Translations under genes and position numbers: made by a program
NCBI GenBank assembly: GCA_022829145.1
Contig: CM040746.1
Location: 4,859,499-4,923,498, forward strand
Source: Albula goreensis
Lineage: Eukaryota > Chordata > Actinopteri > Albuliformes > Albulidae
Reading direction: 5' to 3'
DNA length: 64,000 bases
Shown: positions 3,678-29,900 of the stretch, one piece after another
How positions within the stretch are numbered: position 1 is the stretch's first letter
Layout: each line of letters starts with the position of its first letter
The notes under the pieces: generated by a model
Told to the model about the DNA's origin: nothing
Seen by the model: the letters and a program-made list of their open reading frames with translations, nothing else
Databases searched by the model: none

Positions 3678-6600
3678 TACACTTAAACTATTTACAAAGT
3701 ACTTTACATGCAAAGTGGCCAAAGCTTCTTCAAGACAAAACAAAGGAATATAATAAAAATGTATGTTTCAACATAACAATAAAAAAACAAAGTAAGAAAT
3801 AAAAATCATTAACAAGGCCTTACACACTCTTCAGCTTACACATCCTGAGAAGTGGCCCCGTCCCATATTGTGTCACATTTTAGTTACAGTTTATTTGGCT
3901 TTTTTAACAGTGATGTAATATTGAAGGGGGGCAGTGATTAGCTTATTCTCCATTGCAGCAGCATTGAGGGGGCCAGACTATCTTTAGGTTTAAGGAGAGA
4001 TTATGGTGGCTGGGAACTTCACAGCCAAATTCTTTCACTGTTTGCAGTAAGACACAGCATTCCATACACAGTGCTGTGCATCTCAGAGGAAGAGCAATGA
4101 GGAACAGCACAGCACTGAGGAGCAGCACTGAGGAACAGCAGCCCTGAGAAGCAGCACTGAAGAACTGCATTGAGGAGCAGCAGTGGAATACGTGAAAAGC
4201 GTACCACTGATAACACAGAACAGCACTGAAGTGTGTGAAATGCGTACCACAGATAACACACATACCTTTGAGCTGTTTCTGCTGGTTGGTGAGGATTCTG
4301 CGGATCTCGTTGAGCCAAGCCAGCTTCACATCAACCGTCGGTGCCTGAGGGAAAGATTGGGAGCGCAACACAGAAAGGGGTGAGCAAAACAAGAAGCAGA
4401 CTATTAGTAATGGAAAAAGTGCTGCCGAACTTCATGGCTTTGTTGCTACATGCAGTGACTTTTCAGGCCATCTTCATGACTTCATCTATACAAATAGTTA
4501 AGTGACAAATTTAGCTCTTTTTTCAGACAATGGAGGGAAAATATTAGTGGTTAGAGTTTAAATGCATTTAGGGACTGGTATCCAACAGTATGAATCTGAG
4601 CTGCATGTCAGTTAGCCAGTGAACATAGAGTAGCATACCAGCACAGCCCCTCCCCCTTTCTGATGAGAGTGAATGGAGAGTGTCATTACAATGTATGCAA
4701 ATATAATGTTATCTATCGTTTTCTACTGTATTTTTGATCAGGCAAGTAGCTACTTTCCTCACAAATTAGTTGGTGAAAGTGATTAGAACTGTGACAGACA
4801 AGGAAATGTCAGAATCCTGCTGACCTGCACCACATAGACCTCCTCCCTTCCGCTGTACCAGATCTCAAACTTCTTCACGTCGCCCTTCACATTCTCTGTG
4901 ATTCCCACCGCACTCATCTGCTGGCAAACAGGCACATTTCAAACATTGCCCTGGGTTTGGTTTTCAGCTGATAGTGCCCCAAAAAAACAAAAAAACAAAC
5001 AGCACGTCAACTGTCCGCCCCACTTCCATGGAGGATCAGCCAACGATTAAGTCACACAGTTTTCACACACAAAAACACAACTTTTCTGATACTTTTCTGA
5101 GTGTTGAGTTGAAGTTTGCGTTGTCCCTGATTATATACTGCAGAGCTTACTACAGAACAGGAGAACATTCAAACAAATTTGATGGGATCAAGATTGCCCG
5201 TAATGAAATGGTTGTAACGGTTGTAATCTGAAAGTGATGTCACAACATTCAAATTTGAAGAATTCTCTTATATTGTGGCTACAAACTTTGTCTTGAAAGC
5301 AGCCATGATCAGGACCTCATTCAAATTTTTTGTTTAGCAGCTATGCATTCTCAATACATTATGATGGATGTCCTTCTCTGCAGCACAGCTGTTCTGAGGT
5401 CAGCGGCTACACCTTTAGCTACAGTATCTGATGCTGTATGTGGTCATTAGTACCTTGAGGAAGTGTGTTTAGCTGTAAAGGGCAGCTGTGGTACTAAGCA
5501 GGGGAATCTGAAGCTCATTTTCAGAAGGTTCTGGAAGCTGCCTGTCGTACCTTGAGTAGGTTTTTGAAGCTGTAGGAGGCGGTCTTGTCACAGCCCTCCC
5601 CGTGCTCCTCCCGCCGCTTGCAGAAGAGCAGGGCATGTTCATGCAGGAAGAGGTGTCTCTGCATGGGCTTGAACCGCGCCAGCTCCTTCATCCGCGTTGG
5701 GCCTTTTTTATGACTGATCCACACACTGAATGAGCCTTGCATCAGGACCCGACCCAGCTCGCTCAACTCCCCCTGCAGGCCGCAAAGTGCAATTACATCA
5801 TGACTCATCATCTTTGAGATTTTGGACTTTCGGCCAAATAAAACTAGGTTGACAGATGGATGACAATTATGATATCCTAAAAACATTAAAATATTAATAT
5901 TAAGATGTAGCCTGGTAAGTAAAAGCAAATTTGTTTAATGTTTGAGGTTCCCATGTGGCTAAAGTTACATTTGTTTGTCATTTGATATCGCCCACTGGCT
6001 AAAGCTGAAGTCATTTAGTGTTTAGCTGATTTTGTGATTGAGTTCATCATCCCGCACAAGTTTGTAAGGTAACTAGTACATAATTTTAAGATATTTAATA
6101 TTATTTTAATTTAATTACCTTCTTGTAAAGTCAAATGCCATGAAAGTCTATGAACTTCCCTGTCACACAGTTAGTGAGGCAGTTTGACACCACAGAAGTA
6201 CAGCTTTTAAGCTAACCATAAAGCAATCACATCAAAATCTGTTCCAGCTCCTTTTAATAAAGGATGAATGAAGCCAAGCCAACATGATGGTTGTACAGAT
6301 GTAAGGGTCCCAAACACATCAATAGCTAACATATTAGAACAAATTAGTGTAGTACCTGCTATGAAAATTAAAGTTCATTACTGCTATCGAGATAGCCATG
6401 CTAAGTTAACTCTATTGCTAAGCTTATATCAGTTCATACACTTTTAGTAGAATGTTGGTAGCTAGTTAGATACACTAACACCTGACACATCTGATGGGGA
6501 TACATTTGTTTAGAAGTGTACTAAAAATATATCTAAAATATTAACTATTATAAAACTGAATTTTAATTTCAACATTGGCTTGTCTTTTCACAACATGTTT

Positions 6601-9600
6601 TGTTTATGGAAAATTGATACAGTGCCATTCAATCCAATACCATACATGCTCAGCATGTGTACAACCTGTGCTCAATAAACTATTCCCATGTGCAAACTAC
6701 TACTCAGGTCACACTTTATCTGTGAAAGATACAACCCTAATACATGCTTTCTCTGTGAAAGATACAACTCAATACACCCTCTCTCTGTGAAAGATACAAC
6801 CCAATACACCCTTTCTCTGTGAAAGATAAAACCAAATACACCCTTCTCTGTGAAAGATAAAACCAAATACACCCTTTCTCTGTCAAAGATACAACCCAAT
6901 ACACCCTTTCTCTGTGAAAGATAAAACCAAATACACCCCTTCTCTGTGAAAGATAAAACCAAATACACCCTTTCTCTGTGAAAGATACAACTCAATACAC
7001 CCTTTCTCTGTGCACAGTAAAATACACTGTAAAATGCACTGTCAAATACATCTCTTATGTTTTAGCCAACTATTTCTGTTACATTACTGGATATTTCATC
7101 ATTTACTTGGATGTCTGATGGCCCTGATGTGGGATTTTACAAATCTAAAAACATTTAATATTCAACACGAATAAATGCATAAATTATGACTTGTAATCTT
7201 TACAGGGGAAATTGAGATTGAAACGAATTGAAACTGCTCTGCTGATGAAACAGCCCAGTCTCTAGAGATTTAAACTTTCATATTTGAGAAAAAACTGTGA
7301 AAACTATTTGTGTTCATACAGTTAATTACACTCACAGTGCCTCAAGGAAGTGAGGTTGTCAACCACTTCCTGTCACATTGCTGCAAAAATTCCCTCAGTT
7401 TAATATCACAAGTCAGAGATTGGTATTTGTTTAAGTGCACCAAATTTAAGTAACTATTAATAGACTGCATTAGGCTATTCACCCCTTAAAACAAATTAAC
7501 ACACATTAATACTAATATTCTTTAAAAAGAGGCAATTTCACCAATGTTTGATCGTTTTTTTCCACAAAGCTTTTATTTTATTTCCACAAAGATATCTGTA
7601 TCACTGCACCAGCATGTCCCCAGTGAGATAAAACCACAGAAGCATGAGACAGTGTGTATTGCAAGCCTCCTGACCGGAATTTGCCGTTTTAAGGGAAAAA
7701 ATGTGATCATAGCAATGCCATTGGCTAAAGACATTCATTCTTTGACATTGTCTCTGTTTTTTACCAATCTATTTTAATTAATATTACATAGGCTACATTT
7801 TATTTGCATGATATTAAGTGAAATGAAGTGCATTGATGGATTGAGCCTCTCAGTAAATTGAAAATCACAGCGTACCTGATGGATAATGATAGAAGAAACC
7901 ATTGACTTGGATCAAGACTTACTGGGTTGTTTTGAAAAAATGAGCTCACCTCATACCCTGTTATGGCGACCTGATGCATGGAGTCGTTGACAGATTTGAG
8001 AAGGTCCAGCATCGCGGTTAGCGCCCCCTGCAGCTCGGAGGCTCCTTCACAGCCCATACTGCACTTGAGCAGCTCCTGTTGGAGATTACATATGTCTCAG
8101 TATGAATGCGTGCCCCAGTGAAGTTATGTGACCCTGTTTTTGCAATGTTGATCATTGTGCATTATACTAGTATTCTTTTCTATGTCAGATATCTAAGGAT
8201 TCCTTCAGCTTATTGGATTTTAACTTGTATCTATGGATGATACTGAAAATAAGAGCTGAGTCATCTATACGACAAGATGTGACACATATTTGGATATTTT
8301 TCCTACAACTCTATTGCAGAGTGATACAGTGGCAAGAATGAACACATTTAAAGGATTTATTTTTTAGTACGTCTATGATCATATCACAAAATGAAGTATT
8401 TCCATGTGACTGGCTCAACTGCTGTTATATTAATTTGCTATGGAATTGTTAAGATTGAATTATTAGGTGTTATGAAATGCTCATAATGAAATAAAATGCT
8501 AACCGGTGCAGACCTGAAAATGTAATCTAAAATCCTGAATTCTGCTCAATCCATAAAACAATGTTCACTGGCAGGAAATAATTGCCAAGCATGTTCGATT
8601 TTGTGCTATGACACACTGCTTGTGGAGTATGAATCAGTAATTAAGATTACTCAATATAAAATGGACATCCATAAACAACTATATGCAATATATTGAAAAT
8701 ATTTTAAAAATGTCACCCAAACAGTGTTGACCTTGAAAGCTACAACACACAAAAGAAAACAGCTCTGTCTGTCATGTGACTCCTTCACCCCGTCATACCT
8801 TCAGGTTGTTAAAGTCAATTCAGAACCCTCGCATGAAGAAATATTATAACAGTATGTTATAATTATCAATTACAAGTTACTTAACCTCTCTTGACTAACC
8901 TTCAGAAGGAGCTGGTACTTGGTCAAACGTTGGACTGGTTTCAGTAAGTAGGAGTCCAAGCTCAATTTGTGCTCAAGTTTTCTCTGACATTCCTACACCA
9001 TTAAAAAGAGGCACAAAGAGTCGTGAGAAAATAAAGGTTACATTTCCAAAACTTTTAGTAGTCATTAGAATTTAAAAACAGTATATGGCTTTTCATATCC
9101 ACCATCAAAAGTATGAAATAAGTGTCAATAGATGGTTATGTTGATTCAAGGTGTCTATGATGATAATTCTGTTTGTCTGACACTTGACGGTACACCTGGA
9201 AGAAGGCACAGTCGGAACATTGTCTCCATAGCAGTTCAGAACGAGGCTTGTTCTGACAATATCGCTCATACATCTGGAAGTGTTCTTTCTAGAAGGAAAC
9301 AAACTTTTGTGAGACATTAAAACAGAAGAAAAACCCAACAAACACAAAAACAGACAAAACCCAACAAACAGAGAAACGTCTATGAAACACAAGCACAAAC
9401 TGCAAAAACAAACAAATGGGTGTATGTATTAGAAGTAAGCAGAAGCAAGCAGAAGCTTCTGTGAGATACAAAACACACATTGCAACACCCAGAAAACAGA
9501 TTTAGATATGTACAAGAAATCTACAAATCCCTGCCTTAAAAACAATACACAGCAGACAAGCCATTTATGAATGCACAAACATACACACCTGTACACATAC

Positions 9601-12600
9601 AAATGCTAATGCTAACAAACACACACACAATGTTTGTTTCTCACCCTCTCCAGAAAGCATGCTCCTACACCCTCTGGGGTGTCCATACAGGCCTCCAGAT
9701 CCTGCAGGAAGACCCTGAGAGCAGCACAGAGCAGAAAGGAGGATTCATAGCGACACTTACAGAACAGCCTGTCTGATTCAGCATCAACTCTCCAAATCAC
9801 TCTCACCTGATTCAGTATCAACTCTCTGAATCACTCTCACCTGATTCAGCATCAACTCTCCGAATCACTCTCACCTGATTCAGTATCAACTCTCTGAATC
9901 ACTCTCACCTGATTCAGCATCAACTCTCCATGTGACCATGTTACTGTGTGCAGCTGTGTGTGTGTGGGTGTGTGTAGTGTGTGTTTGTGTGTAGCTGTGT
10001 ATGGATGTATGTGTAAGTGTGTGTGTGTGTGTGTAGCTGTTTACGGATGTATGTGTTAGTCTCTTGCCTGCTGTGGAAGTTGTAGATCTCAGGCATATTC
10101 CCAAACAGGATTTCCTTCTTATTGCGCAGGTTAGGGGGGAGGAGCCCAGAGAGGGCGGGGTTATCCATCTCTGCCCTGTAGCCCTGCAGAGTCACATGAC
10201 AAGGGAGGGTGCAGCTTTGTTTACTCATTGAATTATTGCCTAATAGTCGACAATCTTATTCAGAGCGACTTACAATGTGAGAGAACATTAGTGCAGTCAG
10301 ATATTTAATATGAGTATTAAGTGCCAGAACTGACTACCAGCATTCCAAGAGCACCAAGGATAAATGTGACTATACAGTGGAACCGCGAACACCCCTACTC
10401 ATGAAAAAATCGGCTCTTTCTGAACAAATTTTCACTCGGCCCGCGAACAAGCCCTCGGTGCACGAAAGCACAAACACACAAACTTGCGGGCTTCCCGCCG
10501 TAGCGTGTCGTGGATAGCGTCAGTTGTGCTTAGTACTCAGCGTTGTTTACATCGTTCGTTGTTGTGTTCTCCTTTGATGCACGTTCTTTTTGTGCTATTT
10601 CCATTAAATTTGCCCTCATTATGGCTCCCAAGAAAGTGAAAAGTGCTACTTCCTCCTCCTCCTCTCTTCCTCCTCCACCATCCACCTGTGCCAGAAACTA
10701 CCAACCACAAAGGTAAAGTGTACAATTAATATGTTTTATTTTAGTATTAATGTATTTTTCTACAATTAAGGTTATCTTTAATTCCTTTCTATATTTTTGC
10801 CACACATAAACCCATAAAAACGTTTTAAAAAAGTGTTTCTGGGTCTGGAGAACGGACTAATTGGATCTACATTAATTTCAATGGGAAAAATAATTTTGGT
10901 TCACGAACGGAGTCAACGAACGAATTAAGTTCGTGGGCCGAGGTGCCACTGTACATTACTAAAGCACAAATGCAGATAGTCTATGCTAATCAGAACTGAA
11001 ATACAACTCCTGAATACAAAGGAAGTACATTGATAACCAGCGTTCATACGAAATGCAAGAAACCATAGAAATAGCATGTACAAAAGTAAAACATAACCGT
11101 AGCTGGTATGGAAGGGGGTAAATGTAGAAAATGAGTATAATGTAATGTAATGCTTAGTACATTCATGTATGAATGGTATCAATTCAAAATCTAGCGATTC
11201 TCTGTTCATTATTATGTGCTGAAGTACTAACAGAGCAAATTACACCCCAACACACATTTACACCATAGTAAACAATCTTGAGTCAGCCATATTATTGGGG
11301 GTTATGGAAGTAAAAAATCGTTGTTAGCGTGTGTTTCTCACCAGCAGTATGGACAGCAGTTCATCCACGTAGATCCGCTCAGTCTCGATCAGCTCTCTCA
11401 TCACGTAGCTGGGGATAGAACAGGGTAGGTGCTTAGCGGTAAAATACCAACTGCACCATGTGGAAACAAACCGTTAAACGCCACCCTGCGCCCAGTGCAA
11501 GACAGAGCCCGGAGTGCTTCACTCGATCCAAACCTGTGGCATGATGATAAGAGGACTATGCAGGGCTTCTTGTGTAGGGTGGCCCATGCAGTGAAGTCAC
11601 TTTTTTGGGAAGCAAATGTGAGCCCTGCAATAGGGGGCTCCAGTGCCATCCACCCACCACCGGCTGTGGCCAGAGGTCTGCACTGTCAAGGAAACAATTG
11701 GCTCAACCTTGCAGAGGAAAGATAGGGGGTAAGCCAGCTAAGTTCATCAGTCTCATCGCTCTCTAGCGCCACTCCTGGTCAACCAGGTGCCTGTTGATGC
11801 ATGAACCACGGATGTAGCTGACTTCATCGTCCTCTGATGTTGCATGCAACTGGCAGCATGAAATTGATGGTGCAACTGCTGTGTGGAAGAAAGTCAGGGC
11901 CGGCTGCCACGTGGTCGTCATGCGGGAGTCAGGGTTCACAGCATCCTCGCCTTGAGTCAGCAGAAGCTGGAGTAAACCGTTTGGCTGAGTTTGAGGTGGG
12001 AGTGAATTTAAACATGGAAAGTGCCAGGACAAAGTGTATTTTAGAGCCAAAACAGCCAAAATAGTCATGCTGCTGTCACAGTTTTGAGAAGAACATGGCA
12101 GCAATTATTTATGGTAATACACTGTATTTTAACCAGGGACATGAATATGTCACTGCAGGAGAGAAATTAGAGATACATATAATAATAATAATGATAATAA
12201 TAATCATCGTCATCACAACCACCACATCACCACCATAATCATTACTCATGAATGAAAACACTGCTCACCGTTTGAGAAGGTCTGGGCTGTCTTCTCCCTC
12301 TAAACTAAAGGACAGGAAGCTTCGATTTTCCTCATAGTCATGCATCACCTCTATCTGAGAGAGAGAGAGGGGGGGGAGAGGTAGAAAAATGGAGAATACA
12401 AGCAGGAGGGATACTATTCTTCTTTTCCTTGTTCCATTTGTTAAGCAATATTTCACATAATCCTTTGCCAAAACAGGGGTATGGTTGTTAATCTATTTAA
12501 GCAAACCTGAATCTGACCTTGAAACAGAGGGAAAGGGAGTGTGAAAGTCTCATTTCCTTCATTAATTATTATTTTATCTTTTATCAAATTCCGTCTTCTC

Positions 12601-13325: not shown

Positions 13326-13410
<85 letters not shown>

Positions 13411-14220
13411 AGTGTCTTTCAGAATGAAGGGCAGGGAAGACAGGAGCTCACCTTCCTAGAGTTCGGGCTTTTCCGTGACGACTTCTTGCCTGGGAGAGAG
13501 ATGTCAAACGAGAACTTCAACCCTGAATTGAATTCTGGGGGAAAAAAAAAAAGTGGGGTTAAAAGGCACATTCACCTCAGTATGCAGGTACTAGCATGGG
13601 ATTACTGTACTGAAATCATATGATGTGTACACTTATTACATAATCACCAAACAGGTCTCAATGAACCTTTTATACACATACACAATTATAATAATAGCAT
13701 ATATTTAGAAGAAGCAGGAGGAGAACACAACTTATATTTTATACACTATCCATATATACTGCTGGATATTTCACAGATGAATTTCAGTCATCACTCTGAG
13801 GACCATCAGAGACAAACACTGTCCTGGCGTGACAGACGGCTCCGCTTTGACTCAGTTCACACAACACGCCTAGTGAGACTGAAGTATGTCAGCAGGCCAG
13901 TTTCTCCTGGTCCCAAACGCACCCAACATGGTTCTTTTGATCTTTTTCTCTTTCAGAAGATTTTCCTTCTGATTGGAAACATCAAATGGAGCTGGTCGAT
14001 GTTATGAAGGGTTTTGATATGCTCTCCCTCCCAGTGCCTCACATGAGAGAGCCACAGCCCAGAGGGCAAACACCTCAAACAACAACGTGAGGATGGAAAG
14101 TAGGCAGACGACCTCATACACATACACACACACACACACACACTCACATGAATATATGCTCACACTCAGATACACATACATATATAAACACTCTCTCTCA
14201 CACTCACACACCGTCTCTTT

Positions 14221-14593: not shown

Positions 14594-17500
14594 CAAAGCA
14601 CGCACATTACTGAACACACACATTACATTAAAAAAGCTTGATGGTCTGACAAAGATTTGATCTGGCCTTGTCTTAAGAAAGGTGTTGTACCAAAGTATTA
14701 AGGCAAAACTATTCTGAGCAGAGATGATCGTTTGTGTTTGGCAATCTTCCCTTAATCTATTAAAATATGGCCAGAATTGTATGATATGACCCATTGCTGT
14801 GTACAGTGCCTACCTCTTTTCTGAGGAGCTGATGCCTGTAATTCCATAGGGTGAACTACAATGAGCAGGTGTTGATTAGTGGTTACTTTATTAGTATGAC
14901 CTACATGTGAAACACCCACATTCTCAACTGAGTCACTACTCTATTCTGAAAGGCGAATTTAAAACCATCAGCTATAAACACCTCTGAAGACAAACTGAAC
15001 AGGTTCATCATCAGGCGCGTTAACTCCTGTTATGCCCTGATCAAAACTCATTAGTCTAGTAAGATGATGGTGGGGGTGCTGTATCTAGCAGTCTGCTCTG
15101 TGATATTAGTCCCTGGCTAGGCTGGGAGAGCTCCAGTAACATGCAGACACACAGGCTGCTGTGAGAGCGCGGAGCGGTCCGTATGTAACAAACACCCCCA
15201 GAGCTGGGTCAGTAACATGGGCCCAGGGGACCGTGACGGGGATGGGCAGGGCACAGGAGGCACTGGAGCAAGACAGGGCCCACACTACATTACTACCACA
15301 TTACTGAAAACCCACATTACTGAACCCTCACATTACTGAACACGCACATTACTGAACACGCACATTACTGAACATGCACATTACTGAACCCTCACATTAC
15401 TGAACACCCACATTCCTGAACATGCACATTCCTGAACACTCGCATTACTGAGCATGCACATTACTGAACCCTCACATTACTGAGAACCCACATATTACTG
15501 AACACTCACATTACTGAGCATGCACATTACTGAACCCTCACATTACTGAACACGCACATTACTGAACACGCACATTACTGAACATGCACATTACTGAACC
15601 CTCACATTACTGAACACCCACATTCCTGAACATGCACATTCCTGAACACTCGCATTACTGAGCATGCACATTACTGAACCCTCACATTACTGAGAACCCG
15701 CATATTACTGAACACTCACATTACTGAGCATGCACATTACTGAACGCGCACATTACTGAACACTGAAGTTACTGAACATGTACATTACTGAACACACATA
15801 TTACTGAACACTGAAGTTACTGAACATGTATATTACCGAACACACACATTATTGAATACTGAAGTTGCTGAACATGCACGTTACTGACCACTCATTACTG
15901 AACATGAACATTGATGAACACACAAATTGCTGAACCCTCACATTACTGAACACACACTTCACTAATTATGCACATTACTAAACACGTACATTGTTGAACA
16001 CGCACAGTACTGAACACACACATTACTGAGCTTGCACATTACTGAACACACAAATTGCTGAACCCTCACATGAATGAACACGCATATTACTGAACACACA
16101 CTTCACTAAACATGCACATTACTAAACACGTAAATTGCTGAACACGCACATGACTGAACACTCACAATACTGAATATGCACATTGCTGAACACTCAAGTT
16201 ACTGAACATGCACATTACTGAAAACTCAATTCAGCAATATATACTAAATTGAGTACTAAACACGCACATTACTGAACACTCAAGTTGTTGAATGCGCACA
16301 TTACTGAGCACTCATTACTGAACATGCACATTACGGAACACACAAATGGCCGAACCAATATTGAACGCGCATATCACTGAACACACACTTCACTAATTGT
16401 GCACATTACTAAACACGGACATTGTTGAACACGCACAGTACTGAACACACAAATTACTGAGCTTGCACATCACTGAACACACAAATTGCTGAACCCTCAC
16501 ATTACTGAACACACAGATTACTAAATATGCACATTACGGAACACACAAATTACTAAACATGTACATTACTAAACACGCACATTGCTGAACACACATAGTA
16601 CTGAACACGCACATTACTAAGCATGCACAATACTGAACACGTACTTTACTGAGCACTTCAATGGGGAACGGAAACCCACTGTGACAAAAAAAAGCTTTTC
16701 AAACCTGGCCACTGTCCAGGAACTGTAAGTTTGGCAAATGAAGACAGCTTTAGGAAAGCTAACTTGGCCCAAATCATTACACTTTATTGCCAAACATTAC
16801 ACCGGAGTGTATACTGGTAAAATGAATTATAAATGAAATTTTGGTTTGTGAATGGAATCTCAGGAGCATAACCCCAGCTGTGTGGGTGTGACCATGGCTC
16901 TCACCATGTTTGGGGGAGAACAGGGGGGATTTGGAGCGGGGCGGGTTCTCAGGCCGAGGTGCCACCAGCTGGACGGGCCGGACCTGCTTGTCAGCCAGCT
17001 TCCTCAGGCAGGCCTGGCGGTTCTGGATCATTCCCTGGACGGCAGTGAGCTTCTCGTGAGCTGCTCCGATCTGAGCCTGCAGGGAGCAGAGAGAGATCAT
17101 GGCTCTAAGATTAACTGTCTGCAGGTTTAACTCCAGTCCTGGAGGGCCGCAGTGTCTGCAGGTTTAACTCCAGTCCTGGAGGGCCGCAGTGTCTGCAGGT
17201 TTAACTCCAGTCCTGGAGGGCCGCAGTGTCTGCAGGTGTAACTCCAGTCCTGGAGGGCCGCAGTGTCTGCAGGTTTAACTCCAGTCCTGGAGGGCCGCAG
17301 TGTCTGCAGGTGTAACTCCAGTCCTGGAGGGCCGCAGTGTCTGCAGGTTTAACTCCAGTCCTGGAGGGCCGCAGTGTCTGCAGGTTTAACTCCAGTCCTG
17401 GAGGGCCGCAGTGTCTGCAGGTTTAACTCCAGTCCTGGAGGGCCGCAGTGTCTGCAGGTTTAACTCCAGTCCTGGAGGGCCGCAGTGTCTGCAGGTTTAA

Positions 17501-20500
17501 CTCCAGTCCAGGAGGGCCACAGTGTCTGCAGGTGTAACTCCAGTCCTGGAGGGCCGCAGTGTCTGCAGGTTTAACTCCAGTCCTGGAGGGCCGCAGTGTC
17601 TGCAGGTGTAACTCCAGTCCTGGAGGGCCGCAGTGTCTGCAGGTTTAACTCCAGTCCTGGAGGGCCGCAGTGTCTGCAGGTGTAACTCCAGTCCTGGAGG
17701 GCCGCAGTGTCTGCAGGTGTAACTCCAGTCCTGGAGGGCCGCAGTGTCTGCAGGTTTAACTCCAGTCCTGGAGGGCCGCAGTGTCTGCAGGTGTAACTCC
17801 AGTCCTGGAGGGCCGCAGTGTCTGCAGGTTTAACTCCAGTCCTGGAGGGCCGCAGTGTCTGCAGGTTTAACTCCAGTCCTGGAGGGCCGCAGTGTCTGCA
17901 GGTTTAACTCCAGTCCTGGAGGGCCGCAGTGTCTGCAGGTTTAACTCCAGTCCTGGAGGGCCGCAGTGTCTGCAGGTTTAACTCCAGTCCTGGAGGGCCG
18001 CAGTGTCTGCAGGTTTAACTCCAGTCCTGGAGGGCCGCAGTGTCTGCAGGTTTAACTCCAGTCCTGGAGGGCCGCAGTGTCTGCAGGTTTAACTCCAGTC
18101 CTGGAGGGCCGCAGTGTCTGCAGGTTTAACTCCAGTCCTGGAGGGCCGCAGTGTCTGCAGGTTTAACTCCAGTCCTGGAGGGCCGCAGTGTCTGCAGGTT
18201 TAACTCCAGTCCTGGAGGGCCGCAGTGTCTGCAGGTTTAACTCCAGTCCTGGAGGGCCGCAGTGTCTGCAGGTTTAACTCCAGTCCTGGAGGGCCGCAGT
18301 GTCTGCAGGTTTAACTCCAGTCCTGGAGGGCCGCAGTGTCTGCAGGTTTAACTCCAGTCCTGGAGGGCCGCAGTGTCTGCAGGTTTAACTCCAGTCCTGG
18401 AGGGCCGCAGTGTCTGCAGGTTTAACTCCAGTCCTGGAGGGCCGCAGTGTCTGCAGGTTTAACTCCAGTCCTGGAGGGCCGCAGTGTCTGCAGGTTTAAC
18501 TCCAGTCCTGGAGGGCCGCAGTGTCTGCAGGTTTAACTCCAGTCCTGGAGGGCCGCAGTGTCTGCAGGTTTAACTCCAGTCCTGGAGGGCCGCAGTGTCT
18601 GCAGGTTTAACTCCAGTCCTGGAGGGCCGCAGTGTCTGCAGGTTTAACTCCAGTCCTGGAGGGCCGCAGTGTCTGCAGGTGTAACTCCAGTCCTGGAGGG
18701 CCGCAGTGTCTGCAGGTTTAACTCCAGTCCTGGAGGGCCGCAGTGTCTGCAGGTTTAACTCCAGTCCTGGAGGGCCGCAGTGTCTGCAGGTTTAACTCCA
18801 GTCCTGGAGGGCCGCAGTGTCTGCAGGTTTAACTCCAGTCCTGGAGGGCCGCAGTGTCTGCAGGTTTAACTCCAGTCCTGGAGGGCCGCAGTGTCTGCAG
18901 GTTTAACTCCAGTCCTGGAGGGCCGCAGTGTCTGCAGGTTTAACTCCAGTCCTGGAGGGCCGCAGTGTCTGCAGGTTTAACTCCAGTCCTGGAGGGCCGC
19001 AGTGTCTGCAGGTTTAACTCCAGTCCTGGAGGGCCGCAGTGTCTGCAGGTTTAACTCCAGTCCTGGAGGGCCGCAGTGTCTGCAGGTTTAACTCCAGTCC
19101 TGGAGGGCCGCAGTGTCTGCAGGTGTAACTCCAGTCCTGGAGGGCCGCAGTGTCTGCAGGTTTAACTCCAGTCCTGGAGGGCCGCAGTGTCTGCAGGTTT
19201 AACTCCAGTCCTGGAGGGCCGCAGTGTCTGCAGGTTTAACTCCAGTCCTGGAGGGCCGCAGTGTCTGCAGGTTTAACTCCAGTCCTGGAGGGCCGCAGTG
19301 TCTGCAGGTTTAACTCCAGTCCTGGAGGGCCGCAGTGTCTGCAGGTTTAACTCCAGTCCTGGAGGGCCGCAGTGTCTGCAGGTGTAACTCCAGTCCTGGA
19401 GGGCCGCAGTGTCTGCAGGTGTAACTCCAGTCCTGGAGGGCCGCAGTGTCTGCAGGTGTAACTCCAGTCCTGGAGGGCCGCAGTGTCTGCAGGTGTAACT
19501 CCAGTCCTGGAGGGCCGCAGTGTCTGCAGGTGTAACTCCAGTCCTGGAGGGCCGCAGTGTCTGCAGGTGTAACTCCAGTCCTGGAGGGCCGCAGTGTCTG
19601 CAGGTTTAACTCCAGGGAGGGCTACGGTGTCTGCAGGTCTAGCTCCAGTCCTGGGAGGCCCCACACCGTTTGCAGGGTTAACTCCCAGTCCTGGAGGGCC
19701 GCCCCAGTGTCTGCAGGTTTTAACTCCAGTCCAGGAGGGCCACAGTGTCTGCAGGTGTAACTCCCGGGCCTGGAGGGCCGCAGTGTCTGCAGGTGTAACT
19801 CCAGTCCTGGAGGGCCGCAGTGTCTGCAGGTTTAACTCCAGTCCTGGAGGGCCGCAGTGTCTGCAGGTGTAACTCCAGTCCTGGAGGGCCGCAGTGTCTG
19901 CAGGTTTAACTCCAGTCCTGGAGGGCCGCAGTGTCTGCAGGTGTAACTCCAGTCCTGGAGGGCCGCAGTGTCTGCAGGTGTAACTCCAGTCCTGGAGGGC
20001 CGCAGTGTCTGCAGGTGTAACTCCAGTCCTGGAGGGCCGCAGTGTCTGCAGGTGTAACTCCAGTCCTGGAGGGCCGCAGTGTCTGCAGGTTTAACTCCGG
20101 CCCGGGAGGGCCACAGAGTCTGCAGGTCTAGCTCCAGTCCTGGAGGGCCACACCGTTTGCAGGTTTAACTCCAGTCCTGGAGGGCCGCAGTGTCTGCAGG
20201 TTTAACTCCAGTCCTGGAGGGCCGCAGTGTCTGCAGGATTAACTCCAGTCCTGGAGGGCCGCAGTGTCTGCAGGTTTAACTCCAGTCCTGGAGGGCCACA
20301 GGGGCTGCAGGTTTAACTCCTGTCCTAGAGGGCCTCAGTGTCAACTGGGTTTTTGTGTTTTTTGCCTAGCTCGATTGTTGATTTTAAGGCGAGAAAAAAG
20401 CCAGCACAGCTTGCGGCCCATCAAGACCAGAGTTCAGAACCTTCGCCACAGATCACAGATGTCCCACACACCAAACACAAGCAACCGCATTCACGCATGT

Positions 20501-20873
20501 CTCACAATAATCTACAGCATAGGCTTCCAACTGTGTGTTCTGGTGTGAGGATCACGGCGGGATCGTCACTCGCCTGTGCTCGGGCATCCAGCTCCTCCAG
20601 TTCTCTGATCAGCTGCTCCGTCTGAGCCACACTGTCCCCTGTGGCTCCAATCTCTCGCTCCTGAGCCGACAGCTTCTCCAGCGAGGCCTCCATCTGCAGG
20701 CAGACGTGCCGTTTATCAGCACAATTTAACTGTTCACTGTGTGGTGGCAGTATATTACAAAGGTCAGGGAAGTGGGCTTGCTGCTATACCTCAGCATTGT
20801 ATACAACACAGGAATCACACACACACACACACACACACTATATACACATATACTCTTTCTCTCACCCCCACCA

Positions 20874-20921
<48 letters not shown>

Positions 20922-23900
20922 CCCCACCCTCACCCACACACACACACACACACACACTCACCCCCACCACCACACACACACACAACACACACACCTCACC
21001 ATTACCCCCAGAGTAAACACACACACCTCACCATTAAGAGTAGCAGTCACAGACAGCGCACCGTAAGGCCGTACCTCATGAAAGCTGTGCTCGTATCTGA
21101 GCAGCTGCAGGTACTGCTGCAGCTTCAGGTGGTGCTTCTCGAAGAAGCCGTCGAAGGCCATCTCCATGTCCCTCAGCTGGCCCAGTAACCTGCCACACAG
21201 AATGAGCTCCTTAGCTCAGCGGGCATGCCCACTGATGCCAGCCTGCCACTGGCGCGCTCCCATGTGGGTCTGACTGCCCAACTTTACCTCACTGTCTCTC
21301 ACTAGCTGTAAGACACATCTTGTGAAAATCAAATTTTTCTGGACGGTAATTAGAATCTAGATTTGAGACAATCAATACACGCTACTGAAAATCAATACAT
21401 ATCCATACTTCATTGTATAAAAAAGGTTAACATATTAAATATACAAGTATGCATCACTTAATGTCCACAATACCATCTGTGAAATATGACGATGTGTGAT
21501 TTGGATGTTGTGCAATCACCATATTATCAAAGCTACATGGGATACTGTAGCGTGCCTGTATTGATTAAATAGTAAAGATTCTGTAAACATACAGTACTGT
21601 ATTTCAGCTAATGTATCTGGCAAGGTCATATATGGGTTAAATAGGTTATGTCCGCCACCCCCGTTGCATACCTGTACATAAAAACATATGAAGACAGGAA
21701 ACAGTTTGTTTCGTATCATTTTCTCTACAGGTTTTGGTGCTACATTAGCACTATGACCACAGTCCCCTGTGTGCTTGTTCTGGTTCAGGATGGAGGTGGG
21801 CTGTTGGGTACCTCTGCACCGTCTCCCATTCCTGGCCCAGGTTCCAGTGCTTAAGAGTACGCTCTTCTATCCCGGAGGCCTCTAGGCTGGACAGCAGGTG
21901 ATGCCCCTCCCTTATCACTGCTCTGATGTCATCCTGCAATGATGACATCACAAACACACCATTACACTGAGTCAAAGGCCGAATCCAGCCAGCCTCGCTC
22001 TGATTTAACCCAAAGAAATGCTCGTAAAATATAAAAAGAAAGTCACAATGTAGGAGTTCGGGGAACTAGCTGGACAAGTAACATGCCCTCATTTGCTCAG
22101 TAATAGTGACATCATATTGTCAGTATGTGCTGACAATATGATGTCACTATTGGGAATTAATTTTACAAGGAAGACATGAAATACTTGTTCATATATAGCC
22201 CATTTGGAGGATAATAATGCAGTTATCTTCAGACCCAAGGGTCCCAGCCAGTGTGTTGGCTGGAATGAGTGATGATACTGTCCCTGGGGGAAAGTGTTTA
22301 TACACAAATTCACAGCCTGGCTCATTTTAACGGCCTGTATCAAGGGGACTTATGAATACATGGGACCAAGGGCAAAATAAATCATTCAACATTCATCCAA
22401 TTCAATAAAATTGCAATATTATTAATTTGTTAACTAGCTATTTGTAGTTGTACAAACAGTGTTCAGTTGTATGTTGGAAGTGTATCTATATTCATTTTCA
22501 GCTGTGATTATGTCACTTTCACTGGAACTTATTCATAGCTGTGCATTATCCTAATTCAATGTCTTCAGAAAACTAACACCACCCTTTTGACCAGTCAGGA
22601 GCGAATACTTAATCACTGTAAAATAAATAACGTTCACCTTCTGTTTCCTGTACTTGTCGGTGTGGGACATGAGGAGATACTCGATGGCGGCTCTCTCCTC
22701 GGGCAGGTCGGTTTCCGCGAGCTCCGTGCCAAAAGCTTGCAGCATCTGAGCTATCTCTTTCACAGTCACCGCAAAGCTCTCAATAGCCTGCAGGGGGAGA
22801 CAGAGAGGCAGGATAATAAATAACAACATTGACTGACAAGTCCACAAATTCAGAGCAGTTGCACTGGGAAAACAGAATAAAATCTATACTCGATTACATT
22901 CACAATCACTTAGTGTGCAAGGTGCTATCTCCCCCATGAAATGGAGTGATTATCGTGTAATTTTACATGTCTGTGTAGACAGGCATAATAAACATAGAAT
23001 GTAAATTATATCTGAGCAACTGCACCCGACATTTAGGCAGGTGGGTGAGATTGTCAGTCAGAGCAAAGACTCAGTATTTACTGTAAATAAACATGTTTGC
23101 GCATAGAAGTAGGCTGGTTTGTTAGGGCAGGCAAACACTGCAGTCCTATCATAACCAAATTGACAGAGAGAGACACGGGAGAGCACCAATGTTATGAGAT
23201 ACATGCTGCAGTGGGGTAAAATATTCTGGGGCGTGAGACGTCAGCTCAGTCCTGCGTCCATGAGCAGGCCAGCAGCCATGATAACCCGGGCGCTGACATC
23301 AGCGCCGTTACCAGCTGTCAGGTCAATCGTGAGGTCATCAGTGATGTCGTGGTTACTGTTAGGGCTGGTGTCCAGTGAGGCCAGACCGTAAGCATGATGA
23401 TGTCAGCATGCAGCTGTGCATACCGTGCGCAGCACGATCCAGTCGCTATGGCAATACTCCAGCGTGCCGCCAAATTCAGAGGTCAGCTGGTTCTCGTCGA
23501 TGTAACGCAGCAGGTCTGTCACAGAGCTGAGCATCACCACCTGGGAGGGTATACCATACGAAACATGGAGCATTCTGACAGATACATACGTATATCCCAT
23601 CCTGCACTTTTAAAATGATTTAGGCCAATGATGTGAAAACTGAAAATTTTTATTTCTGAGATAGTGTGAGCATTTTGAACATAAAAATACATTTTCTTAA
23701 AAGGATACCCCCCGGGCAATAACGTACATTCTTGCATACTCTACTAGTGCTGGGAACTAATTCATTCCACGCTGCTTCTGTTTTATAACTAACTTTGAGT
23801 AAAAGCAGCAAAAGACTATTGCAAAAAACAGTTATTATGTGTTTGGAAACATCTAAACCAGCCTAATGAATAATCAAATGTCGTTCAGTGCTGGTCAAGG

Positions 23901-26900
23901 TGACTAAACATTTATTATTTTTGCTTTCAAACTAATTTATGCTTTGAAGGCCAATTTTAATTAATTTTAACAAAGTCAAATGAGTCAATGGTTCATTGTT
24001 ACAAACCATTTAACAAACATTTGACCTATATTTCTAATTATATGAATGTGCTATTGACTATTTGACTGATTCATCAGTATCTGATTGGTTGATTGGTTCA
24101 TTGGTTCATTGATTTATTGATTGATTACCGGCATCTTCAGCATGAAGTCCTCCTGGCTGAAGCGAAAGCCCAGGTCGGTGACAGCACGCTGGAAGAAGCT
24201 GGTGGGCCGCAGCACCAGGACCAGGTGGAGGGTCCCCGGGAAAGAGGCCTGAGGAGGGAGGGGTGACCTCAGAAAAGCTGGCTGGCTGGTACACACTCAC
24301 CAGACTGATACACACATCCAGTCATATACGTGCCAAATGAACCATTACCAAAACACACCTAACACTCCAATAGAGACATGCACAGACCAGGATGGACCAT
24401 TTGTGCAGTCAATAAATCACAGCAGGTTACATGTTTCATTGTGGCTATGTGCGTCACAACACATGGCAATTTATATTCTGCTCGGTTGCTGTGAGTGCTT
24501 CTTTTTTAGATTTAATTTTTATTATGTACGATTATTTGAAAATGCCTAGGAACTAAAGCATAAATGGTTTGACTTTCCAAATACCTGCATTTAATGGACT
24601 CACGATTTTTATCACTGTTCTACCCAAACAAATGATCACGTTTCTTGCATGTTACGGATTGAAGAAACCCAGCAACTCACTTCAACCCTCCAGCTGCGAA
24701 AATTGGGTAAAGCACCATACATACGCTTTTCTTGATGCAGATTCTTGCAGAAAGATTTGAGTTTTAACTCAGACCTACAGAAAGTGACTCATAAACAATT
24801 CTACCCAGTCTCCAAAAAATATAATCAAAGCCGATTATAACTAATTGCAGAAGGTCAACAGCTGTATGTGCCACAGAAATGTACCCAACGCCCTGTGTAT
24901 ACAACGTATGCTAATAATGACTGAACCACCAGGAATCACAAAACAAGGCTGCACATTAGAGGCTGCTTGCAGAGATGCATTGTGGGTGGTGAAGGATGTT
25001 GAAACAGAATTGCCTTCTCCAAATCTTCCTCTGAGAGGGCAGCGCCTATTACGATGCACAAACACCAAGACACTTAGAGACATTTAAATCTCATTTAGAG
25101 ACCCTTTCCGCATTATGACCTTATCGGAACAATCAGCACCACGTGAGTTTTAAGTCCCTGGGATCCAGAAAGGAAGTTAAGCAGTGTTCCCATGTCCCTC
25201 CTCCACACTGCAGAAACAGAGTCTGACCAGCACAGAGGTGCAGGGATGTGGGCGTGCAGCGTTACTGAAGTTAAACAGTGAAATATCTGCATATTCATCA
25301 TGCCTGCTACAAAACAATATAAGTGCACACCCACCTTAACTGATTAGTTTTGGGTTTGGGTTGGGACAAATATCCAGGGAGAAATCGCCCTGTGTTCACT
25401 GTATAAGATTGGTGGGTATTCATTGTAATTTGTCATTTTTGGACAGTAATTCATACCAGACTGCTGGAAAATCAGACACTGTCTAAACACTTCATAACCA
25501 GTGTTAGGGTGCAAAGGAACGCGACTGCAACCCAGCCATACCGGAAATTACAAGAGAACTCTTTGAAACAGCAATGATATACATTTTTACTCATTGTAAC
25601 ACAAAAAATACATATACTTATTTTTCAGCTATCTGTTCACCATAGCAACTAATTTCTGTATAGCTGCACGAGTGCGATGTGAAAGAGGCTAATCAAGTAT
25701 CGCAGATCATACGAAGTGGCAGTGATGCTTATAATCATTTACCTTAGTTATAAAATGGAGGGAGGCACAGTATATTTCTATTTTTAATAAAACAGTCATT
25801 AATTCGACTGCTTCAACTAAATGTCATAAATAACTTAAATTCAGACTTTAGTAAAATATCCATTTATGACTGCATAGTTTAAGTACTGGTGTGCTACCGG
25901 GCGGTGCTGTGGGTACAGCCATGAAGGGGTAAATCCCAGCTGTACGCGTGCCAGCTAATGTAGCGGCAGCCAGCTGCTCTTACTTGCTGATGGAGAGCAG
26001 TGTAATCATGTCAGGTTTGTTGAGATATTTGTTCTAGGCCAGCTGTTCTATACCATCGTAACAATGATTTGTCCTAGCGTTCCTCTGCTATTTACTGCTG
26101 GCACGGACATTTCTGTTCTATTCCAACCCGGATTGACAAAAAAAAAACTCTCCATAAGTTAAATGCATCGGGCTGGCGGAATCGCATGACTAAGCGCGTT
26201 CTACTTCTTGGCACCGCAGTAATGTACAACAAGCTTGTGCTACCGGCAGCCAGCTATGCCGCATTCACCCTGCCCATCTCAACTTGAGGGGAAACTCTTG
26301 TGCACGTGAATAATCTTAAAGTAAAAACCCCTTACCACCGTCCTCCGCATCCTATGAAGTCCTCGGCGCGAATTGGCGTCTGACATCGTCTTTGTTTCGG
26401 CGTTTTTTTTTAGGTTTTAATTCCCACTTTCGTTTTCGCCTCATCCATTGTGGCTGTACCTGCCGGTGCCACCTCGCTAACTCTGGGTGCGGGACTGGGT
26501 GCAGCGGCGAAGATGCTGCGCCCAGACTCGTTAGGTTTGTCTGCAACACGTAAAGATCTCGAGCTGGATTCTTTTCTCGTTCATCGTTTTTCTCTTGAAG
26601 CCCATCACGATTTACGGAACGTAATCGAGCGTCAGTTTTTCGGAACATACATTTCTCATGGTGTTGTAGTAAATGCTGTACTTGCACATTCTTATTTCCA
26701 CCATGCCCAGGGCGCTTGTGCGCTGTCCACGATCACGTGTGAGAGGGAACACTGTCAGCTGCAATACTCAGTTTAGGTTAGAAAATTGAATTTGAACTTT
26801 TCTCACCCTGGTACATATGTTACATGGTATTGATTAATAGTGCATCTCAAATGTGTATCACTGAACCCAGTCACGTGTGCCTGCGCAATGATTATGTCAG

Positions 26901-29900
26901 ACAGGCAGTTACTGGCGTAAAATGGGCGCGTATTCAAGAATGGGGGTGAATTAATGAATTCGGAAGTTATCCGGGTCGGGTGATGTGAATTCAGCCAAGG
27001 GGGAGGGCGATGTCAACTTTTTAAAGACCAATTGTTGTCGAGTTCACGTTATAATAAATAATCGTTAATATGTAAAAATTCGGTTTCATGCGGATTAATT
27101 TTTCCTGGCAAGATGCAACTGTCTTCCAGGTATTTACGCCCCTGACCACACTAGATTCCGTACATTTTCAGAAGCAGAGCTAAGTCCATTTTCAGCACCA
27201 TGGATAGTACTCCAAACAGGACTTCGTTTCCTTGTCAGGTAATGTAGCCAACTTTTCAGCTTTACTGAAGCAGGTTCTGGTAAAATCATCAGACGTTGGC
27301 CAACAAATCAAATCTAATAGAAACATTTACATGCAATGGTAGTTTTTATCTCTATAAACGCAAAACCGTTTTTTTTTTTTTTTTTTCAAAATTTTGTCTG
27401 GGTTACTTCAACTTCGGTTTCTTCAAAAATGACACAAAATATAACAAGAGCGGTATAATAATTAAAGTAGGTGCATCATACAATTACATCTGTTATGATC
27501 ATGGGGAGTTTCTCACCGCAATCCTCGCCAACGCCGTTTTTATGGACGCCCATGTGTCAAGTCTACGGTCCAGAATGATGATAAACTTTACGCCCGGCTG
27601 CCGCGTTCTGAAGAACGAGAGAAAGACAATGAATCTTTATTAGTAATGTCTGAAATAATAATATTTTACACAATTAGGTTGAATGCTTAAAGCGAGTCAG
27701 ACAATAAATACTACCTAGCAGGACTGCTGAGAAACCAGATTTAATAAGTGAGCAGTGAAATGGAATGACATTCCAAGATTTGTAAAGGCGTAATTACATA
27801 TATATAACTTTGTACTTAAAAGTGTAATATCATCTAGCAACATCCAATCACCACTACCACATCTCACCATGCTAAGTGTTACCTATCTAACCTAATTTAT
27901 TGTTTCCCCAGTCCAGTCATGATATTTCCTACTAATCATTCAAACATTAACACTGAGATATGGCACAAATGCTATACATGAATCAAGGATACAATGTGAA
28001 GTGAAGAAAAAAAAATCCAATTAATCTCTGTTTAAGTAGAAACTAAAGAGCACAAGTAGGCTACCTATGACCGAAATGTGAGAGGCATATTTTCACAGCA
28101 GAAGCAAGGTAGTCGATTGGATTTTAGATCTAAAATCTTACAGGTTAAACATATATCTTTTTCCTTTTCAATGTTAAAATCATGCGCAGCAGGGGACACT
28201 GGGGAAAACCGATGCATGAGTGCCAGCAGATATTTTCTAAAAAGCCTCAAATGAGGTTGTACAGGGTGGATCTGTGCGATCTGTGTTATGGTATTTGTCA
28301 TGTAACTCTTCGCAGACATAATAAAACATTACAGTAGCTGCAGGAGAAAGGGTCCAGTAAGTTTACAGAGTAGGCCACTGCAGTGCCAGTAGGGCGTTTA
28401 CTGATGAGCAGGAGGAGTGGTTTACTATTGAAGGTAACTGATCTGTAATTATGGACTGTTTCCTCATGAGGTAAGCAAATGACAGGCGCACGATAGGCAA
28501 AAAATGAATCAGTACAATGATGAACTTTGGTATTGCTATTGTTCAAAATCTATTTTTTTAGATCAGAAAACAAACATGGATACATTTTGAGGAAGACTGA
28601 AAAAGTTTACAAATGGAGGCACATGCATATGTGTGAGTGCAAACCAACACAGCCTGTCTACATTTTAGTATAAGGTATGTGCCTGAATGTTTTTTTGCAG
28701 CAATTACATTGTCTGCACTGAGTTTCTGCACTTTCAGCTGCTTGTCACATTCAACCCCAGGTACTGTTACAACCATCTCTTGGTGTGGGGTAGAATGTAA
28801 CATTTCACTTCTTGTATGTGAGATTAATTTTCACAATCTCCATTAGCATTGGAGGTATGGGCATATGTGGGTACTTTGTCTCAAATTTTGAAAGGTCTAG
28901 CACAAATAAAAGCTGAGCATTGAATGCAAAAAAATTGTTACAATCATCTCCGGTCTACCCTACTGAATTATGGTGAACTAAAAAATTATATGTATATTTC
29001 AAATCCCAGAGATGAATGTTCACAACTGTATGGTGGATGTCAGGAAAGTGGCGGGTCTACATTTGTCACTTGTAATGCCCTGCGATGACAAGAAAATATG
29101 GCCCCTGGAACAATAGTTCTTCAGCTGCTAGCTTTGTTCTAGAAGAAGGATCCCGTTTGAGTAACTAGCTCTCCATAAAGAGCAACGTGACATTGGAAGC
29201 AGCACTATCACAAATATGAGGGAATTAATTTGAGCCATACCCAGCTAACCAAAGCTTGAAACAATCTATGTGTTGAGAATGCAGACCCTAGCGGAAGGAG
29301 ATACTGCAATGCAGAGAGAGAGAATCAGTGGATGAAAAATGTAAGCAGGCCTGGGAGAGAGGGGAAAAGAGAGAGAAGGAGAGAGAGTGTGGGGGGTTGC
29401 ATTTGTGTGTATCACATACCGTGGAATCAAAGTGAGGTAAGTTAGAACTTTGGCTAAAGCCTCTTCTGGAATGTCACTGAAAGCAGAGCATTCTGGGAGG
29501 GTGATGACCACACTAGACTCCTCCCCCCGGCCTCCTGGACAAAAGTAATTAGACAAATTACAAATGTATCAATCATGTTTTGCAATCATGTTTTATGTCA
29601 ATAACGTTTAAATTATGTGGTGGTTAGGGCAACAGACATCAAACAATTTTACATTATTGATGTAAAGGCAAGTTAATCACACTGAAGGTGATATGCTCCA
29701 ATGGTCATTGTCTTGGAAAAAGAAAAGACAATTTCTGCACTCCACTGTCCCCTGCTGGCCAGTAGAGGGCCTGCAGGTTTGTCACTGAGCTTGGTTGACT
29801 CCGAGTTCCTCTGACAGCAGTCTGTGGGGTAGTTCAAACTGATGACGTCTTCCATTTTGGGTGGGGAAAAACATCTTCGCTATTATTAGCCAGCGAATAG

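What the first reader, a model, noticed from the sequence alone, without database searches (positions are those of the whole stretch)
17077..20573. A block of about 125 spectrin-like residues of MCF2 is missing where a 3.2-kb minisatellite sits
The exon at 20,574 ends (ELEELDARAQ) and the exon at 17,076 starts (AQIGAAHEKL...LADKQVRPVQ) at points that align without gaps to mammalian MCF2 on either side of a block of about 125 residues. That block normally forms a second spectrin-like segment. Both exon edges are in phase 0, so skipping it keeps the frame. The interval holds 87 copies of a 37-bp repeat and no recognisable exon. Either the exons were lost as the array grew, giving a shortened but in-frame Dbl, or the assembly joined through the array and dropped the exons.
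Basis: partly seen in the sequence, partly recalled or inferred. Interest (0 to 1): 0.75.

Follow-up and report, generated by a model that had tools for sequence, protein, structure and literature searches.

The report
Fish mcf2 copy missing two exons
One of two copies of the growth-control gene mcf2 in a fish genome lacks two exons that its intact sister copy still has, and a large tandem repeat sits in their place, so this copy would probably make a shortened protein, although an assembly error cannot be ruled out without reads or a transcript.

Summary
The window carries an mcf2 (Dbl) gene on the minus strand. Exon A (20693-20574) and exon D (17076-16905), phase 0 at the junction, flank a 3,497-bp interval that is 92% one 37-bp array (17116-20342, 87 copies) with no recognisable exon. 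The whole genome is held (932 Mb, 208 contigs). A second mcf2, on contig C2, encodes the missing 128 residues in exactly two extra 192-nt exons, X and Y, both phase 0/0, with no such array. Of six MCF2-family genes found, 5 have exon Y, and 4 of the 5 where X could be read have X; the window gene lacks both. No other copy of its X and Y was found in the assembly, and no second haplotype of the exon-D locus. Otherwise the modelled gene is open (18 exons, 0 stops) and overall evolves no faster than the C2 copy.

Best reading (about 0.7): a real, probably recent, in-frame deletion in one of two paralogous mcf2 genes, with one breakpoint in the array, leaving a Dbl with a broken spectrin region. 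An assembly join through the array (about 0.2) remains possible, but needs the same repeat on both sides of the lost exons.

The parts
20574..20693 (-). mcf2 exon A (last exon before the gap), 120 nt, phase 0/0, ...ELEELDARAQ; donor CAG|GCGAGT (GC donor)
   Evidence: C2 paralog exon 22601127-22601008 has the same length and a GT donor
20343..20573 (.). remaining 231 bp of intron after exon A; no trace of lost exons or introns above background
17116..20342 (.). 37-bp minisatellite, 87 copies, mostly perfect with one common T/G variant; decayed at the exon-A end, perfect at the exon-D end; its only indels lie at 19615-19763
   Evidence: genome-wide family
17077..17115 (.). 39 bp of intron left before exon D, with acceptor CTGCAG
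16905..17076 (-). mcf2 exon D (first exon after the gap), 172 nt, AQIGAAHEKL...LADKQVRPVQ
   Evidence: paralog exon 22598831-22598660, 172 nt
13452..13489 (-). 38-nt micro-exon GKKSSRKSPNSRK, kept close (44) to another tandem array, and needed for the frame
   Evidence: same-size exon in C2 paralog
21075..24248 (-). mcf2 Sec14/CRAL-TRIO C-terminal part and first spectrin-like exons (5 exons)
4266..12354 (-). mcf2 linker, RhoGEF (DH) and PH exons (10 exons), no stops
27517..29544 (-). two upstream Sec14 exons (tblastn matches at 29544-29422 and 27594-27517; not joined to the model)

Best explanation
This is a real, in-frame loss of two consecutive phase-0 exons (X and Y, 64 + 64 residues) from one of two paralogous mcf2 genes. 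The most likely event is a deletion with one breakpoint in or at the 37-bp minisatellite and the other about 39 bp upstream of exon D. It removed X, Y and their introns and left the array against exon D; the array was amplified and homogenised before or after. Exon A then splices to exon D in frame, giving a Dbl that keeps Sec14, DH and PH but whose spectrin region is cut: the first part of one spectrin-like repeat is fused directly to the last helix of the DBS-like spectrin domain. Because that region holds proto-Dbl inactive in mammals, the product is predicted to be less tightly autoinhibited, while the paralog on C2 keeps the ancestral form. Shown: absence of the exons from the sequence, open frame, intact paralog, no other copy found in the assembly. 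Inferred: that the DNA is assembled correctly, the deletion mechanism, the splicing of A to D, and the effect on activity.
For: The C2 paralog has the block as exactly two extra 192-nt exons, phase 0/0; of the 18 shared exons 17 have equal length and one differs by 3 nt. C13, C5 and C24 have A, X, Y and D as separate exons; C21 has Y and D. PF23289 genome-wide finds exon Y in 5 genes and not on C6. A search with the C2 block gives 9 matches, 2 on C2 and 7 on four mcf2l-type genes, none on C6 or another contig; the one odd hit, on C20, is a RasGEF exon. The exon-D stretch has 2 matches, itself and C2 at 79%. The modelled gene has 0 stops in 1,999 nt, and DH and PH score as in C2. dN/dS to C2 is 0.02-0.06 in Sec14, exon D, linker, DH and PH; unique changes are 23 versus 22, p=1.0. 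23 consecutive perfect units in sequence without N imply long reads that would normally span 3.5 kb (inference). No other copy of this unit was found in the window.
Against: No reads, transcript or related species could be examined. Exons D and A show no relaxed constraint specific to the window copy (1 vs 2 and 4 vs 3 unique changes), so an old loss is not supported; the event must be recent, or not real. In Sec14 the window copy does have more unique changes (7 vs 1, p=0.07), the one segment that leans the other way. By perfect consensus units the array is the most extreme of its family in the assembly (28 of 70 five-unit matches), exactly where an assembler is most likely to fail. The lost block (128 residues) does not match one spectrin repeat (Pfam model 105 positions), so the product is not an obviously well-formed domain.
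Confidence: 0.68

Rival explanations
1. Assembly artefact: the true locus reads exon A - array - X - Y - array - exon D with a total array too long for the reads, and the assembler joined the two arrays and dropped the exons.
For: The array has the most perfect consecutive consensus units of its family in the assembly and tandem arrays are classic misassembly sites; missing exons were among the most frequent false losses in older vertebrate assemblies (PMC9516821, passages). The gene shows no relaxed constraint next to the gap.
Against: It needs the same unit in the same orientation on both sides of X-Y, for which there is no sign: no other copy of the unit in the window and no such array around the C2 exons A-D. 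It also needs an array longer than the reads. Dropped exons were not recovered on any other contig. The indel patch at 19615-19763, which could have been a seam, is normal for this family: the 3 arrays looked at, out of the 8 overlapping loci fetched, carry 1, 3 and 6 indel events in 4.9, 4.2 and 8.5 copies.
Confidence: 0.2
2. The deletion is real but polymorphic: the assembled haplotype lacks X and Y and other haplotypes in the species keep them.
For: No relaxed constraint specific to exons A and D and about equal overall rates with the C2 paralog fit a very recent event; homogeneous minisatellites are unstable (established knowledge).
Against: No second haplotype of the exon-D stretch was found in the assembly, so it cannot be tested here.
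Confidence: 0.1
3. The exons are present but unrecognisable, or moved elsewhere in the genome and joined by trans or distant splicing.
For: A weak local similarity of the 231-bp flank to the exon-Y start region of C2, and a weak X-like hit on C20 (aligned to recalled human X better than 500 of 500 shuffles).
Against: The flank similarity is reached by 1 of 64 pieces of the C2 region (which may overlap the target itself) and 1 of 40 other window pieces, and falls from 28.5 to 22 when TG tracts are masked. The C20 frame is a RasGEF-domain exon by Pfam (20.7 bits, E 0.0004, just under its cut-off of 23.1) and has no nucleotide similarity to X. Whole-genome protein searches otherwise find only paralogs.
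Confidence: 0.02

Closest known systems
MCF2 / Dbl proto-oncogene (Sec14 - spectrin - DH - PH RhoGEF)
   Same: Same domain order; DH and PH intact; aligns to recalled human MCF2 along its length
   Different: Lacks 128 residues of the spectrin region
mcf2 paralog on contig C2 of the same genome
   Same: 89% identical in Sec14, DH and PH segments, 58-89% elsewhere; same exon layout
   Different: Keeps exons X and Y; no 37-bp array at exons A-D; about 14 kb against 20 kb for the same exons
Oncogenic Dbl (N-terminal truncation of proto-Dbl)
   Same: Loss of regulatory N-terminal/spectrin sequence with DH-PH kept (PMC3440356, passages)
   Different: Oncogenic Dbl loses the N-terminus by truncation; here an internal in-frame block is lost and Sec14 is kept
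False exon losses in vertebrate assemblies
   Same: Exons missing from an otherwise present gene (PMC9516821, passages)
   Different: Here the gap is filled by continuous sequence without N and the flanking exons stay in frame

Membership tests
MCF2/Dbl RhoGEF | RhoGEF (DH) domain | tested here: met
   PF00621, 133.7 bits, 1-180 of 180
MCF2/Dbl RhoGEF | PH domain after DH | tested here: met
   PF22697, 105.6 bits
MCF2/Dbl RhoGEF | Sec14/CRAL-TRIO at the N-terminus | tested here: met
   PF13716, 35.6 bits, profile 69-136 of 137; two further Sec14 exon matches upstream
MCF2/Dbl RhoGEF | complete DBS-like spectrin domain (PF23289) | tested here: not met
   22.5 bits, positions 38-80 of 80, below cut-off 27; the C2 paralog gives 60.3 bits over 1-80
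MCF2 proper rather than MCF2L | closest to MCF2 and to the C2 mcf2 gene, no tail SH3 | tested here: inconclusive
   Closest gene in the genome is C2 and the shared Sec14 exons fit recalled MCF2 better than recalled MCF2L; no tree was built and the C-terminal tail was not modelled
Teleost-duplication paralog pair | old duplicates with conserved synteny | tested here: inconclusive
   dS 0.8-2.6 by segment, saturated in exon 5, fits an old duplication; synteny not tested
Dispersed minisatellite family | same unit in arrays at many loci | tested here: met
   5,030 exact 30-mer matches (2,448 + 2,582), pattern read backwards 0; five perfect units 70 times at 21 places (places counted by hand)

The most novel reading that the evidence does not exclude
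A runaway minisatellite has very recently, and perhaps still polymorphically, excised two exons of the autoinhibitory spectrin region from one of two mcf2 paralogs, creating a naturally derepressed Dbl beside an intact sister gene that serves as the internal control.
Probability: 0.35. Interest if true: 0.6.

Novelty: new variant of a known kind. Interest (0 to 1): 0.42.

Why it matters
Truncation of the regulatory N-terminus turns mammalian Dbl into an oncogene. A vertebrate that carries a germ-line, in-frame cut in the same regulatory region, with an uncut paralog in the same genome, would be a natural test of what that spectrin segment does. It is also a concrete case of a tandem array removing exons, or, if wrong, a clear example of false exon loss in an otherwise gap-free window.

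Tried and rejected
Assembly seam inside the array: all 7 indel events lie in copies 68-72, which first looked like an unpolished join. Three arrays of the family (L001, L003, L005, of 8 overlapping loci fetched) have 1, 3 and 6 indel events in 4.9, 4.2 and 8.5 copies, so such indels are ordinary; rejected as evidence.

Sharp array edge as a breakpoint signature: the exon-D edge is a perfect unit, the exon-A edge is decayed. Of the 10 other arrays measured, several have perfect or near-perfect edges too, so it is not diagnostic.

Relic of exon Y in the 231-bp flank: best local score 28.5 beats 200 simple shuffles (maximum 26) but is reached by 1 of 64 and 1 of 40 control pieces, and falls to 22 when TG tracts are masked. 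Rejected.

Stray copy of exon X on C20 (E 0.27, 0.002 within L029): it beats 500 of 500 shuffles against recalled human X and against C2 X, but Pfam reads the frame as RasGEF and there is no nucleotide match to X. Rejected.

GC donor of exon A as a sign of decay: a second GC donor occurs at exon 11 of the same gene (2 of 17 introns of the modelled chain; 0 of 19 in C2), so it is not specific to the gap.

PDB by sequence: no relative of the spectrin region (4 chance hits, E 0.22-0.79). Array sequence in viral and prokaryote collections: 0 matches.

In one search two exon ends were set wrong, giving a false frame; corrected.

Full report
What was claimed.

The observation. Tandem Repeats Finder gives one array at 17116-20342, 37 bp x 87.1 copies. 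Human MCF2, recalled from memory and therefore only a lead, maps exon by exon on the minus strand. With splice sites set, the window gene between 24248 and 4266 is 18 exons, 1,999 nt, no stop codon, all acceptors AG, and 15 GT and 2 GC donors at the 17 introns within the chain. It includes a 38-nt micro-exon at 13489-13452 close to another array (array 13326-13408) that keeps the frame. Two more Sec14 exon matches lie upstream at 29.5 and 27.6 kb; the first exons and the C-terminal tail were not modelled. Human residues 270-397 (128 aa) have no counterpart; the best match of that block anywhere in the window is E 0.40. The search has limits: exon A itself is found only at E 0.12 with recalled MCF2 and not with recalled MCF2L, which also gives exon 4 only E 0.44. 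Absence from the window rests more firmly on the paralog's own exons, which give only chance-level hits there.

The whole genome. The window lies at C6:4859499-4923498 of a held genome of 932 Mb in 208 contigs. The recalled human block finds its best matches on contig C2, at 57% and 52% identity (11 matches in all). C2 holds a second mcf2 at 22606266-22592030: 20 modelled exons, 2,386 nt, 0 stops. Of the 18 exons shared with the window gene 17 have the same length and one is 3 nt longer; the two extra exons are X (22600807-22600616) and Y (22599525-22599334), each 192 nt and phase 0/0. X plus Y is 128 residues, the size of the human block. In C2 the three introns between A and D are about 0.2, 1.1 and 0.5 kb (from the coordinates) and the 10 kb around them contain no 37-bp array.

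How general the exons are. Pfam PF23289 (DBS-like spectrin domain) finds exon Y on C21, C13, C5, C24 and C2 and not on C6 (9 matches). It also misses exon D of both C2 and C6, so a miss there is not proof by itself. Direct reading shows A, X, Y and D as separate exons on C13, C5 and C24, and Y and D on C21, where 5,000 N precede Y. So 5 of 6 MCF2-family genes have Y, and 4 of the 5 that can be read have X; the window gene is the exception. A search with the C2 block protein gives 9 matches: C2 itself (2) and the four mcf2l-type genes (7); none on C6 or any other contig. The tool scores only its best candidates and N stretches cannot be read. A weak X-like hit on C20 turned out to be a RasGEF exon. 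The exon-D stretch 16800-17115 matches only itself and C2 at 79%, so no second haplotype was found. The labels mcf2 and mcf2l-type rest on similarity to recalled human sequences; no tree was built.

What the loss does to the protein. The window model scores 133.7 bits for RhoGEF and 105.6 for the PH model, close to C2 (134.6 and 104.0), but PF23289 falls from 60.3 bits over positions 1-80 to 22.5 bits over 38-80, below its cut-off of 27. In recalled human MCF2 the lost block covers about the second half of a weak spectrin-repeat match (18.1 bits, below its own cut-off) and about two thirds of PF23289, so it is not a clean removal of one repeat. The fused segment has no evident helix breaker at the junction, so a long helix rather than a three-helix bundle is my guess; no structure was predicted. 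In mammalian proto-Dbl the spectrin region, acting with the PH domain (one passage calls the binding indirect, and Hsc70 is involved), blocks access to the DH domain, and N-terminal truncation makes the oncogene (PMC3440356, passages). Weaker autoinhibition is therefore the natural prediction; it is untested.

Is the gene alive, and is the loss old? Window and C2 genes differ by dS of 0.8 to 2.6 depending on the segment (saturated in exon 5), with dN/dS 0.02-0.06 in Sec14, exon D, linker, DH and PH, and 0.35 in exon A. Changes unique to the window gene against recalled human MCF2 number 23, to C2 22 (p=1.0); by segment, window versus C2: Sec14 7/1, exons 4-5 3/6, exon A 4/3, exon D 1/2, linker 2/2, DH 4/3, PH 2/5. 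The Sec14 excess is the largest asymmetry (p=0.07) and is not next to the gap. So the window gene is constrained overall like its sister and shows no relaxation beside the gap. This speaks for a recent loss or for no loss at all.

The array. 87 copies differ mainly by one T/G variant; copies 20-42 are perfect, the exon-A end is decayed, the exon-D end is a perfect unit 39 bp from the exon. The unit is a genome-wide family: 2,448 + 2,582 exact 30-mer matches, 0 for the pattern read backwards. Five perfect consensus units in a row occur 70 times at 21 places; 28 of the 70 are in this one array and no other place has more than 7 (counted by hand). By that measure, which ignores arrays built of variant units, it is the most extreme array of its family in the assembly. 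No other copy of the unit was found in the window.

Real or artefact. A long-read assembler drops unique exons at an array only if the same repeat flanks both sides over more than a read length. Nothing seen here shows a second array, and 23 perfect copies in sequence without N imply long reads. A single deletion with one end in the array needs no such arrangement, and an intact paralog makes it tolerable. Against this stand the exceptional array, the absence of relaxed constraint beside the gap, and the lack of reads, transcripts or relatives (the tool states that the genome has no relatives here). I put a real loss at 0.68, an artefact at 0.2, and count a still-polymorphic real deletion apart at 0.1.

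Literature. Judged by titles and abstract openings, no listed paper concerns this loss: 4 of 4 listed; 15 of 18; 15 of 23; 15 of 31; 5 of 5; 15 of 123; 10 of 65; 10 of 318; 10 of 34. Passages were read only in PMC3440356, PMC9516821 and PMC10820872; the last, on zebrafish Mcf2lb, holds no mention of spectrin. This is not a claim that the loss is unpublished.

Noticed in passing
window 17116-20342 and genome-wide: The 37-bp unit is a dispersed minisatellite family with 5,030 exact 30-mer matches; of the 21 places with five perfect units, at least 11 lie within 4 Mb of a contig end (not all contig lengths were seen).
   Followed up: partly
window 59437-60102: 47-bp x 14 array whose unit (GGTTAGGGAGCTGGGCTTGTAGCTCAGAGGTTA) resembles the head of a tRNA-derived SINE (recalled resemblance; no tRNA called in the window).
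   Followed up: no
window 1-64000: Heavy load of minisatellites: about a dozen distinct arrays with 30-70-bp units, several nearly perfect, while the 10 kb of C2 around exons A-D (L022) show only dinucleotide tracts and two short repeats.
   Followed up: partly
window mcf2 exons: GC3 is 73.7% in the window gene against 63.6% in the C2 paralog while intron GC is about equal (39.8 with arrays masked, and 39.4 with exons X and Y left in); two GC donors in the window gene, none in C2.
   Followed up: no
L025 1245-6244 (C21:23061245-23066244): Block of exactly 5,000 N just before exon Y of the C21 mcf2l-type gene, gap or withheld; its exon X could not be read.
   Followed up: no
L028 (C24): The C24 paralog has about 4 kb between exons X and Y, against about 0.8-1.1 kb in C13, C5 and C2.
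   Followed up: no
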